This document shows positions 38,830 to 45,298 of a stretch of DNA of 46,680 nt, piece by piece (positions within the stretch are counted from its first letter, which is position 1; each line of letters begins with the position of its first letter). Below the pieces are notes generated by a model. It saw nothing but the letters and a program-made list of their open reading frames with translations, was not told the origin of the DNA and made no database searches. The DNA lies in IMG/VR virus record IMGVR_UViG_3300017971_000394, positions 1 to 46,680 of that record; one strand, written 5' to 3'. The translations under genes were made by a program, and so were the position numbers. This DNA is from a virus.

Positions 38830-39018
38830 ATGATACCACTAATCGAAATAAAAGAAACCAAGCAATGTGTGTGGTGTGGCAAGCCGACGGAGAATTTCCA
38901 AACAGTAGGGCCGCATCAAATTTATTACTGTAACACAAACCCTGTCTGCTATGCGGAATTTAGACGAATCAAAAACGATTTGCTATTCGGCTGGAAATAC
39001 GATGCGGAGGATAAATGA
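38830..39018 (+). CDS. Small zinc-finger protein
   Basis: The 62-residue protein carries CVWCGKP near residue 13 and CNTNPVC near 33, a likely four-cysteine zinc site. It is followed by a short helix. It overlaps the resolvase gene by four bases (ATGA). Its start is preceded by a GGGG sequence lying within a hairpin, which may control it. Function is unknown; nucleic-acid binding is plausible. Confidence 0.6.
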   Translation: MIPLIEIKETKQCVWCGKPTENFQTVGPHQIYYCNTNPVCYAEFRRIKNDLLFGWKYDAEDK

Positions 39019-41983: not shown

Positions 41984-42961
41984 ATGGCACGAGCATTTAA
42001 GAACCAAATAATTATCGATGCTGTAAGGCGATTTCAACACCTACCGACACGAACGATTGCAAGGCATGTGCTAAACACTCATGGTGAACTTTGGGAAAAC
42101 GACCTTGAAAAAGTGCGTGATTCGGTGCGTTATTATCGCGGTCAGCATGGTGATTTCAACAGGGAACAGGCTTCCACTAAGGATTTCTTTTGTGATTCAA
42201 TCTCAATGCCACAAACGTGGCGCAAAATCAGAACACCACACAAACTACACGAAGGAACATGGCTGGTTTTGTCTGACATTCACATTCCGTTTCACGAACC
42301 AAAGATAGTTGAAACCGCGATTGATGCCGGTATGGTTGAAAAGGTCAACGGGGTTTTGTTAAACGGGGATGTGCAGGACTGTAGTTCCATATCGTATTGG
42401 CGATCACTAAAGCGTGATTTCAACAAAGAGATTGAACTGTCAATAGATTTTCTTGATTATCTGCGAATCAAGTTCCCGAAATGCACGATTGTTTACAAGC
42501 CTGGAAACCATGAACTCAGGTTGCCAAGTTATTACATGAATCACGCCCCGGAATTAGCCGACACACCGTTAGCCTGCATGGAAACAATCCTTGGATTCGA
42601 GGAACGCGGAATAGAGTTTCTTGATTATTATCAGAAAGTCATGGCGGGCAAGCTGCCGATATTTCATGGGCATGAGTTCCGCAATATTACAATGGCGGTC
42701 AATGCGGCACGAGGACTGTTTTTAAAAACCCATTCTTTTGCGGCAATATCTCATTGCCACACAACCTCAATGCACCCAGGGACAAATGTTAACCGGGAAG
42801 CCCTAACAACATGGTCTTTTGGGTGTTTGTGCGATTTAAGCCCTGACTATAATCCATTTGGCAATCAATGGAACTGGGGCTTTGCGATTATCGAGATCGA
42901 AAAGAACGGAGACTTTTTTGTAAATAACCGGCGAATTTTGCCATCGGGAGATGTTGTATAA
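41984..42961 (+). CDS. Metallophosphoesterase (calcineurin-like)
   Basis: The 325-residue protein has an N-terminal HTH-like extension (residues about 8-50) and a calcineurin-type core: D98/H100 in LSDIHIPFH, GD at 128-129 in LLNGDVQD, PGNHELRL near 175, and later FHGHEF and AISHCH. These coordinate two metals for phosphoester cleavage. The N-terminal extension resembles DNA-binding regions in phage proteins and may bring it to DNA. The exact substrate cannot be read. It overlaps the next start by one base. Confidence 0.85.
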   Translation: MARAFKNQIIIDAVRRFQHLPTRTIARHVLNTHGELWENDLEKVRDSVRYYRGQHGDFNREQASTKDFFCDSISMPQTWRKIRTPHKLHEGTWLVLSDIHIPFHEPKIVETAIDAGMVEKVNGVLLNGDVQDCSSISYWRSLKRDFNKEIELSIDFLDYLRIKFPKCTIVYKPGNHELRLPSYYMNHAPELADTPLACMETILGFEERGIEFLDYYQKVMAGKLPIFHGHEFRNITMAVNAARGLFLKTHSFAAISHCHTTSMHPGTNVNREALTTWSFGCLCDLSPDYNPFGNQWNWGFAIIEIEKNGDFFVNNRRILPSGDVV

Positions 42962-43188
42962 TGGCTGACATAAAGGAATTTCCACCGGTAGATGAAGACC
43001 TGATAGACGAGCGGATCTTTTTCGATATTATCAAAGACATTCTTATAAGGCTAATTTTCGATATTATCAAAGACATTCTTATAAGGCTAAAAAGATCGGA
43101 AACGGAAACAGAAATGGTAATGTATAGCCAAGCTCTGAAAAATGTATCGGAATCGTTACAGATTTACATGGAAGAATTGAGCGAATAG
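42961..43188 (+). CDS. Small hypothetical protein with an internal duplication
   Basis: The 75-residue protein contains a perfect 12-residue tandem repeat (FDIIKDILIRLI/K), made by two identical 36-base units in DNA. The rest is acidic and helical. It follows directly on the metallophosphoesterase. It lies two genes before the guide array; its role is unknown and the repeat may be recent. Confidence 0.6.
   Translation: MADIKEFPPVDEDLIDERIFFDIIKDILIRLIFDIIKDILIRLKRSETETEMVMYSQALKNVSESLQIYMEELSE
43019..43090 (+). repeat. Perfect 36-bp tandem duplication
   Basis: Two identical 36-base units at 43019-43054 and 43055-43090 start with TTTTCGATATTATC and end with AAGGCTAA. They preserve the reading frame. 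The lack of any difference points to a recent slip or duplication (or an assembly artefact). The unit shows no TGTGAACC or TGAAATCC word. Confidence 0.9.
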
Positions 43189-43226: not shown

Positions 43227-44129
43227 ATGAACGAGGAAAAAGTCAGGGAATTAAAATTCTTATTAAAAACCTACGACGCACTTAACAGGGCAATTGTAAG
43301 CACCAAAAACCGCCTAACGTCAATGAACCCGGATGCAAAACACGAACACGATTGGCTTTTAAATGGATGGAAAACCGGAAAAACGAAATACCACGGACTT
43401 GAAAATATCAAGGGGAGGGTGTCGCGGCAAATCGAAAAATGTCTGCAATACTGGGACATTTGGAATGCTTGGTTAAAGGATGTACCGGGTTGCGGACCGC
43501 ATTGCGCGGGGAATTTAATTGTATTGTATTATTATCGATTCGTTCCGATCTGTAAAAAATGCGGTGCGGATTTAGTTGAATTTGAATGCCCCGAACACGG
43601 GAAAGCAAAAGGCGATGGAGTTTTAAATTTTAGGATAGAAGAACGGGAGCATCAAAATGTTGGTAAGTGGTGGGCACATTTAGGGCTTCATAATGACGAA
43701 GAAGGGAAAAAACCAAAACGACAAGCGGGCAAAAAGTCGAATTGGTCAAATATTGGCCGTCAAATATCATGGGCTTTGGGGGAAGGGTTTATAAAATCAA
43801 AAAATGAGTACTATAAACACTATCTTGAAAAAAAGGCTGAGTATGAGCGCACAAGACCGGATTGGACGAAGGCCCATAGATCAAATGCCGCCGCCAATGT
43901 AGCGGTTAAACTTTTTCAATCACATTTTTGGCATGTTGCCCGCACAATAGAGGGAAAACCAACGATTAACCCTTATGTGCAGGATATACTTGGACATAGC
44001 AATATTGTTCCGCCTTATTATTGGGATAACAACCAGAAAAATGTTGAAATCCAACTGCCCGATGTGAGCCATTATTGCTCTGAAATCCAGAAACCTGGTG
44101 TGAACCATTGCCGTTGTGAAATCCAGTGA
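43227..44129 (+). CDS. Tas-like protein (Nop/IS110-type RNA-binding fold), no nuclease domain
   Basis: The 300-codon gene starts with GGGAGGG upstream. Residues 1-80 are helical. A helix-hairpin-helix-like DVPGCGPHCAGN lies at 85-96. A zinc-ribbon-like insertion has C109, C112, C121 and H124. KWWAHLGLH at 147-155 is followed by a basic, helical region to about 240 (SNIGRQISWALGEG, EYYKHYLEKKAEYE, AAANVAVKLFQSHFWHVART). This order resembles the C-terminal part of IS110-family transposases, which is related to the Nop domain of snoRNP and Tas proteins. No HNH or RuvC nuclease is attached. The gene runs into a 36-nt guide array, and its last 28 or so residues (273-300) are encoded by array units. 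The array and fold together support a standalone Tas protein; identification is by pattern only. Confidence 0.75.
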   Translation: MNEEKVRELKFLLKTYDALNRAIVSTKNRLTSMNPDAKHEHDWLLNGWKTGKTKYHGLENIKGRVSRQIEKCLQYWDIWNAWLKDVPGCGPHCAGNLIVLYYYRFVPICKKCGADLVEFECPEHGKAKGDGVLNFRIEEREHQNVGKWWAHLGLHNDEEGKKPKRQAGKKSNWSNIGRQISWALGEGFIKSKNEYYKHYLEKKAEYERTRPDWTKAHRSNAAANVAVKLFQSHFWHVARTIEGKPTINPYVQDILGHSNIVPPYYWDNNQKNVEIQLPDVSHYCSEIQKPGVNHCRCEIQ

Positions 44130-44647
44130 ATAGCTGTGAGCCATTAATATCTTGAAATCCACTAAAGTAATGTGAACCATTTTTATCTTGAAACCCAACA
44201 CCCGAATGTGAACCAGTGGTTTTATGAAATCCATCACAGACATGTGAACCATTATCCGGTTGAAATCCAAGGTGACTGTGTGAACCGATCTTTTTATGAA
44301 ATCCGTAAATTCGCTGTGAACCGATTGAATGCTGAAATCCAAGAAAGGTATGTGAACCGTGTTTTGTTTGAAATCCAAAAGAGAGGTGTGAACCACTTGA
44401 GTGCTGAAATCCACGGCGCCTGTGTGAACCGGGCCAAGCATGAAATCCAAAGGTCACGTGTGAACCGACCCAAAATTGAAATCCAGGCCCCTAATGTGAA
44501 CCATTTTGTGTTTGAAATCCGTGTTGGCAATGTGAACCAGCAAGCCTCGGGAAATCCATAAAGGAGCTGTGAACCGTTTTTAAGTTGAAATCCATAATCA
44601 CCATGTGAACCAAGATGATATTGAAATCCATCTAAAAAATGTGAATT
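44045..44647 (+). repeat. TIGR-type array: about 16.5 units of 36 nt with paired 9-nt spacers
   Basis: The unit is TGTGAACCR-N9-TGAAATCCR-N9. TGTGAACC-type words start at 44063 and then every 36 bases to 44531, then at 44568, 44604 and 44640 (the last is TGTGAATT). TGAAATCC-type words start at 44045 and then every 36 bases to 44513, then at 44550, 44586 and 44622. All of the 33 spacers differ. The one 37-base unit begins at 44531, with a 10-base spacer and GGAAATCCA. Variants are TGTGAGCC (44063, 44135) and TGAAACCCA (44189). The base after each word is always a purine. This matches the layout of TIGR arrays, whose 36-nt RNAs carry two short guides. CRISPR repeats are longer, and their spacers are near 30 bases. 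No other repeat family fits. Confidence 0.85.
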
Positions 44648-44677
44648 ATTAACACTCTAACGGAAGGGAAAACAAAA

Positions 44678-45298
44678 ATGAAAGGTATAACAAAAACCAT
44701 TGAGCAAAAATTTCAAGGACAAACCCCGGAACAGGTTAACGAAAAAGCAAAACGCTACAAGATCGCGGCTCAAACCAATATGATAGAATTTGTTGAACAT
44801 CTGCACTGGCTTAAACGAAACAGCCGATTCAGAGAATTGCCAGCCTATAAAGATTCAACATTCGAGTATTTTGTTTATAACGAGCACGGAATAAAAGAAC
44901 ACGCATATTACAAGCTGGAATGGGCCGCGCTTAAACACCCCAAAGAAGTCATGCAATATGGTATTGGCACGATTATAAAAATTCGCGATAAATGCGGATT
45001 CTTGGGTGTGAAAAAAGTAATTGCTGAATTTGATAAAAAAAAGACGATTAATCAGGAACAAATCGATAAGGTTATTGGTAAACACGCATTGCCGGTAAGG
45101 CGCGCTGATTTACCGGCTGAATTAGATTCCGTATTTTTGCAAAAAGAAGTGGAATCGTTGCGGGTTATGCTTAGAGCGAAGGATTCAACAATTACGGAAC
45201 AAGAACAACAGATCGAAAAATTAAAAAAGACCGTTGAGCTATTAAAAGAACAAATAAACGACAAATTAAATTCAATTATTGAAGCTGAAGCAGCATAA
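44678..45298 (+). CDS. Hypothetical protein with C-terminal coiled coil, after the array
   Basis: The 206-residue protein begins with GGAAGGG upstream, 31 bases past the array end. Residues 1-120 are helical and lysine-rich with an aromatic-rich middle (FEYFVYNEHGIKEHAYYKLEW). Residues about 145-200 form a coiled coil (DSTITEQEQQIEKLKKTVEL). It is not recognised. It could be a partner of the array system or an unrelated early phage protein; nothing in its sequence shows a nuclease. Confidence 0.6.
   Translation: MKGITKTIEQKFQGQTPEQVNEKAKRYKIAAQTNMIEFVEHLHWLKRNSRFRELPAYKDSTFEYFVYNEHGIKEHAYYKLEWAALKHPKEVMQYGIGTIIKIRDKCGFLGVKKVIAEFDKKKTINQEQIDKVIGKHALPVRRADLPAELDSVFLQKEVESLRVMLRAKDSTITEQEQQIEKLKKTVELLKEQINDKLNSIIEAEAA

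What the first reader, a model, noticed from the sequence alone, without database searches (positions are those of the whole stretch)
43227..44647. A TIGR-Tas-type dual-guide RNA system in a temperate phage
Seen directly: a strict 36-nt periodic array (TGTGAACCR-N9-TGAAATCCR-N9, about 16.5 units, all spacers different) lies at the 3' end of a gene whose protein has a helix-hairpin-helix plus helical IS110/Nop-like region. Established: TIGR-Tas systems, reported in 2025, pair Nop-domain Tas proteins with arrays giving 36-nt RNAs that carry two short guides. Inference: this is a phage-borne member with a standalone Tas lacking a fused HNH or RuvC nuclease. It might bind rather than cut, or work with another nuclease such as the RuvC-like protein at 39015.
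Basis: partly seen in the sequence, partly recalled or inferred. Interest (0 to 1): 0.97.

Follow-up and report, generated by a model that had tools for sequence, protein, structure and literature searches.

The report
Phage RNA-guided DNA-binding system (TIGR-TasA)
A temperate virus of bacteria carries a genuine TIGR array (a row of paired 9-letter guide sequences) next to a nuclease-free RNA-binding protein and a conserved partner gene, so it is a real but already described kind of RNA-guided DNA-binding system whose targets remain unknown.

Summary
Window 44027-44648 is a dual-repeat array: 17 spacer pairs, edge TGTGARCCR, loop TGAAAYCCR, 9-nt spacers, 36-nt period, one 1-nt slip. Shuffled windows contain no such units. 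The adjacent protein is a Tas homologue by sequence (NCBIfam TIGR_Tas_endo, E 6.8e-26; TasR structure 9mty, E 2e-16) and by fold (Z 19.1 to TasR, 19.5 to TasH). It matches only the Nop part, so it is a TasA without a nuclease. TIGR-TasA in phages was published in 2025 (PMC12045711), so this is a new member of a known kind.

The suggested RuvC helper at 39015 is not conserved with tas. Searches for spacer targets found nothing above chance. Most likely function: RNA-guided DNA binding and bending without cutting, together with the partner.

The parts
43227..44129 (+). tasA ORF, 300 codons; conserved solo-Nop domain about residues 1-272 (43227-44042), the last 28 codons are translated array
   Evidence: NCBIfam NF052498 E 6.8e-26; PDB 9mty TasR 2e-16 and TasH 2e-6; fold Z 19.1 to TasR, 19.5 to TasH over the Nop part only
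43551..43598 (+). zinc-ribbon insertion in the Nop domain (C109xxC112 ... C121xxH124; CxxC...CxxC in relatives)
   Evidence: conserved in all 8 aligned members and in L132 and L241; TasR has only about 8 residues at this place
44027..44648 (+). dual-repeat TIGR array: 17 edge-spacerA-loop-spacerB units, 36-nt period, truncated edge repeats at both ends
   Evidence: edge 3:6 pair U-A/U-G in 17 of 17 versus C-G in relatives
44678..45298 (+). partner gene, 206 aa: all-helical N-terminal part with weak ParB/Noc-like match, C-terminal coiled coil; probable TasParB
   Evidence: homologue in all 8 informative zinc-ribbon TasA loci and nowhere else among the loci held; model pLDDT 87; VIA-align Z 6.7 to Noc, 4.5 to SopB

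Best explanation
This is a TIGR-TasA locus of the dual-repeat type in a temperate phage of a probable delta-proteobacterial host. Most likely mechanism: the tasA-array-partner transcript is made as one operon. The array part is cut at the edge repeats into 36-nt tigRNAs, each with spacer A and spacer B. A TasA dimer holds one tigRNA, with the UG/CCR boxes of the edge repeat on one protomer and those of the loop repeat on the other. The RNP then opens an 18-bp target by pairing A to one strand and B to the other. Having no nuclease, it stays bound and bends the DNA, and with the helical coiled-coil partner (probably the ParB-like TasParB) it blocks or reorganises the target, for example transcription, replication or inheritance of a competing element. 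Shown here: array anatomy, Tas homology and fold, absence of a fused nuclease, conserved partner gene. From the published TasR/TasH/TasA work: 36-nt processing, tandem pairing, bending. Inferred: transcription as one operon, binding without cutting, partner involvement, and competition with other mobile elements as the role.
For: Array: 17 units, zero expected by chance. Boxes: UG at the start, CCR at the end; the edge 1:9 pair is U-A or U-G in 17/17, and the extra edge pair 3:6 is U-A/U-G in 17/17 where relatives have C-G, i.e. covariation as described for tigRNAs (PMC12045711). Protein: NF052498 E 6.8e-26; 9mty 2e-16, TasH 2e-6; predicted fold matches TasH Z 19.5, TasR Z 19.1 (model 6-267 on TasR 111-322, so the RuvC domain is missing) and IS621/ISCro4 Z about 14.5. 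Twelve records picked by array pattern alone all carry a Tas gene. Zinc-ribbon clade 100/99. Partner in 8 of 8 informative loci; its profile also found it in L132, which was not used to build it. No terminator or promoter better than chance between tas, array and partner, consistent with one operon.
Against: The NCBIfam score (91.6 bits) is below that model's curated cut-off of 100. No spacer pair has a target above the chance level in the own record, in 2.1 Mb of collected loci, or, for the three pairs tried, in the viral collection, nor for two of them in 395 genomes of the phylum. Processing, binding and bending were not tested for this protein. The partner's DNA-binding nature rests on weak fold matches (Z below 8) and no sequence match.
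Confidence: 0.85

Rival explanations
1. The same TIGR-TasA, but it cuts through a nuclease supplied in trans, such as the RuvC-like protein at 39015 or a host enzyme.
For: A RuvC-like resolvase is encoded 3.8 kb upstream, and TasR carries a RuvC domain (PMC12045711).
Against: Among the other zinc-ribbon TasA loci a homologue of 39015 was seen only in L151, about 6 kb from tas; it matches ordinary phage Holliday resolvases. Flanks of several loci are short.
Confidence: 0.06
2. A relic: a formerly active TIGR locus that is decaying, with the tasA stop codon lost into the array.
For: The ORF reads 28 codons into the array; one loop repeat is GGAAATCC after a 1-nt slip; loop and edge repeats carry a few substitutions.
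Against: All 17 edge pairs remain pairable, the Nop domain is intact and close to relatives, and L139 and L101 also read into their arrays, so the overlap recurs rather than marking decay.
Confidence: 0.06
3. An RNA-directed system: TasA-tigRNA pairs with RNA, as box C/D RNPs do, or guides a modification, rather than binding DNA.
For: The Nop fold is shared with box C/D snoRNP proteins (PMC12045711).
Against: TasR had no activity on RNA substrates and bound DNA (PMC12045711); the nearest folds here are TasH, TasR and IS621, all DNA-acting.
Confidence: 0.03

Closest known systems
TIGR-TasA, dual-repeat type (Faure et al. 2025, PMC12045711; for example the Flavonifractor plautii FpTIGR)
   Same: Solo Nop protein without nuclease; alternating edge and loop repeats with 9-nt spacers; UG and CCA boxes; 36-nt unit; truncated edges at both ends; phage setting
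   Different: Zinc-ribbon insertion in the Nop domain; no intrinsic terminator after the array; the array lies between tasA and a partner gene and overlaps the end of the tasA ORF; edge pair U-A instead of C-G
TIGR-TasA with TasParB (Faure et al. 2025, fig. S14)
   Same: tasA operon with a second gene; arrays before, between or after the two; operon conserved while flanks vary; partner with a ParB-type fold hint and a C-terminal region that could dimerise
   Different: Identity of the partner to TasParB was not tested, as the supplement is not held; the window has 9-nt, not 10-nt, repeats (L150 and L153 of the same clade have 10-nt edge repeats)
TIGR-TasR / TasH nucleases (PDB 9mty, 9vzx)
   Same: Nop domain fold and the same repeat grammar
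   Different: Here no RuvC or HNH domain
IS110-family recombinases (IS621, ISCro4)
   Same: Related RNA-binding fold, Z about 14.5
   Different: No DEDD/RuvC domain, no bridge RNA, an array instead of a single guide RNA

Membership tests
TIGR-Tas (dual-repeat array) | Two alternating repeats of 8-12 nt separated by spacers of about 9 nt, spacers all different | tested here: met
   Edge 9 nt, loop 9 nt, 33 of 34 spacers 9 nt and one 10 nt, all distinct
TIGR-Tas (dual-repeat array) | Array begins and ends with truncated edge repeats | tested here: met
   TAACAACCA at 44027 and TGTGAATTA at 44640 (sequence)
TIGR-Tas (dual-repeat array) | UG and CCA boxes in both repeats, extra pair in the edge repeat supported by covariation | tested here: met
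   Box pair U-A/U-G in 33 of 34 repeats; edge 3:6 pair U-A/U-G here, C-G in relatives
TIGR-Tas (dual-repeat array) | Adjacent Nop-domain Tas protein | tested here: met
   NF052498 E 6.8e-26, below its curated cut-off; 9mty 2e-16; Z 19.1-19.5 to TasR and TasH
TIGR-Tas (dual-repeat array) | Rho-independent terminator after the array (described as typical, not as defining) | tested here: not met
   No plus-strand terminator-like site between the array and the partner gene
TIGR-Tas (dual-repeat array) | Array processed into 36-nt RNAs bound by Tas; tandem-spacer DNA targeting | not testable with these tools
   Needs small-RNA sequencing and binding assays
TasA (solo Nop) | No N-terminal RuvC or HNH domain | tested here: met
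   Model residues 6-267 align to TasR 111-322; the ORF begins at the coiled-coil helix
TasA with TasParB | ParB-like gene in an operon with tasA | tested here: inconclusive
   Conserved partner in 8 of 8 informative loci; fold hint to Noc Z 6.7 and SopB Z 4.5 only; no sequence match; published TasParB sequence not available
CRISPR-Cas | Single repeat of about 25-36 nt with spacers of similar length and cas genes | tested here: not met
   Two alternating 9-nt repeats; PADLOC gives no match for the tas protein
IS110 transposon | N-terminal DEDD/RuvC catalytic domain | tested here: not met
   Only the C-terminal RNA-binding part is matched, model 1-264 on IS621 123-317

The most novel reading that the evidence does not exclude
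The zinc-ribbon TasA and its obligate helical, coiled-coil partner form a distinct two-protein branch of TIGR systems, in which the partner, not a nuclease, is the effector that turns RNA-guided DNA binding into silencing or partition control in phages of delta-proteobacteria, and the partner is not the published TasParB.
Probability: 0.2. Interest if true: 0.65.

Novelty: new member of a known kind. Interest (0 to 1): 0.42.

Why it matters
What nuclease-free TasA systems do, and what they target, is stated as open in the founding paper. This locus gives a near-complete phage with a canonical array, a clade-defining zinc ribbon and a conserved partner gene, with relatives in named lineages (Smithella, Desulfobacula). 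That makes the partner's role and the spacer targets testable. It does not by itself change the picture of the family.

Tried and rejected
Spacer targets: the tandem geometry B + 0-2 nt + reverse complement of A (derived from PMC12045711) and three other geometries against the own record, 117 units against 1.2 Mb and 104 units against 2.1 Mb of collected loci gave no clear excess over re-paired spacers, apart from hits fetched by the search itself. Exact matches in the viral collection were 3, 0 and 2 for three pairs, about what chance gives by my own estimate, and 0 and 1 in 395 genomes (the reversed control gave 1 and 0). Spacer strand bias: spacer A is T-rich and B A-rich in the window (p 0.001), as expected if both derive from one A-rich target strand, but other arrays do not show it consistently, so no general claim. 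Coding repeat: the array frame is open only because the repeats lack stops; the tail is not conserved and has pLDDT under 50. Rfam: no match. Partner: no Pfam, PHROG or PDB sequence match that could name it. RuvC 39015 as helper: not conserved with tas. Close copies of this array in the viral collection: none. Plasmid collection: no Tas match.

Full report
Observation. The array is real. Elements TGTGAACCR (edge) and TGAAATCCR (loop) alternate every 18 nt from 44027 to 44648, with 9-nt spacers. There are 17 spacer pairs, all different, and a single 1-nt slip before the loop at 44550. Fifteen exact edge-N9-loop units occur where shuffles give none, and the edge 9-mer is found nowhere else in the record. 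The array starts with a 5'-truncated edge (TAACAACCA, only its AACCA end kept) and ends with a 3'-truncated edge, which is how TIGR arrays are described (PMC12045711). The record is a virus genome of 46,680 bases with GpA terminase, portal, major head protein and tyrosine integrase, so a temperate phage.

Protein. The ORF 43227-44129 matches the NCBIfam model TIGR_Tas_endo (E 6.8e-26, 91.6 bits, slightly under the curated cut-off of 100), PDB 9mty (TasR, 2e-16) and TasH (2e-6). A model from eight family members (pLDDT 74) has TasR and TasH as its only structural matches below E 0.001, with IS110 recombinases next (Z 19.1, 19.5 and 14.7). Only TasR residues 111-322 are covered, so the RuvC part is absent. 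It is a TasA in the published naming. The last 28 codons are translated array, are not conserved and are predicted with low confidence; the functional protein is about residues 1-272.

Independent test of the array-protein link. A search of the viral collection with a pattern of the box grammar only (TGNNNNCCR every 18 nt), followed by a filter for two conserved alternating repeats, gave arrays in 12 records, selected without any protein information. All 12 records carry a Tas-family gene, 10 of them over the family cut-off.

Clade. Profile searches gave nine further relatives of the window protein: L139 (=L138), L101, L094 and L132/G001 from viruses; L150 (Desulfobacteraceae), L151 (Smithella), L152 (Ca. 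Desulfobacula maris) and L153 (Deltaproteobacteria) from genomes; and L241 from a genome of the phylum of L151. All carry CxxC...CxxC (CxxH in the window) inserted between the helix ending YYY and the next strand, where TasR has about eight residues. The group is one clade with 100/99 support (the insertion itself adds columns to that tree). It is rare: 2 of 395 genomes of that phylum, one of them the Smithella genome on which the search was centred. The host of the window phage is therefore probably delta-proteobacterial, which is inference.

Partner gene. The ORF 44678-45298, directly after the array, has a homologue beside tas in six other loci. A profile of these seven proteins found it also in L132, which was not used to build the profile. 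It was found in no other locus held, including eight other Tas loci. L101 and L241 end within an array and are uninformative. The order is tas-array-partner except in L152, where the partner comes first and three short arrays lie before, between and after the genes. The flanking genes differ from locus to locus: terminase in L139 and L094, other genes in L150 and L151. The partner's model (pLDDT 87) is all-helical with a 58-residue C-terminal helix of coiled-coil type. Foldseek finds nothing significant; among the second-look matches the DNA-binding domains of Noc (Z 6.7) and SopB (Z 4.5) stand near the top, which is weak but points to the ParB family. The 2025 paper describes a ParB-like gene, tasParB, in operons with tasA, with arrays around and between them and diverse flanks. 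I think this is the same partner, but could not compare the sequences.

RNA features. In TasR the box bases U and A pair in each repeat, and the edge repeat has one further pair. In the window the edge 1:9 pair is U-A or U-G in 17 of 17 and the 3:6 pair U-A or U-G in 17 of 17. In the relatives the 3:6 pair is C-G in nearly all copies. A compensated change between loci is what a functional RNA predicts. No terminator-like site follows the array and no promoter-like site stands out, so array and both genes are probably one transcript.

Function. From the published work, tigRNAs of 36 nt guide Tas dimers to an 18-bp DNA target read on both strands, with strong bending; TasA lacks a nuclease, and its role is stated as open. 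I therefore favour RNA-guided binding without cutting, with the partner contributing the effect, most likely against competing mobile elements. The target side remains empty: no search exceeded its control. The RuvC-like protein at 39015 is an ordinary resolvase and was seen at one other locus only.

Verdict. As a kind it is already described, so novelty is limited to a new member with a zinc-ribbon clade and a conserved partner; the words zinc and ribbon do not occur in the main text of the founding paper, and its supplement could not be checked.

Noticed in passing
L150:10948-12215: Array of about 34 units with 10-nt edge repeats; the B spacer TTGATTGAA occurs three times with three different A spacers, and the pair AAAAGGCTA/AGAACCAAA occurs twice in drifted form. 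This suggests growth by duplication or shuffling of half-units.
   Followed up: partly
window:44027-44648: Spacer A is T-rich and spacer B A-rich (swap test p 0.001), as if every pair came from the same, A-rich strand of its target; other arrays do not show it consistently.
   Followed up: partly
window:43019-43090: Perfect 36-nt tandem duplication (two copies) inside the small ORF 42961-43188 just upstream of tasA; same length as the TIGR unit but unrelated sequence.
   Followed up: no
window:68-1201: Protein with a ParB-like N-terminal part fused to a DNA methyltransferase (PHROG 498 and ParB-like families).
   Followed up: no
window:40892-41734: Radical SAM-type protein (PHROG 9298) with a close homologue (E 2e-112) upstream of the tas locus in L152.
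   Followed up: no
L101:97-170 and L139:7226-7241: In these relatives too the tasA reading frame ends inside the array, its stop codon supplied by array sequence, so part of the array is translated.
   Followed up: partly
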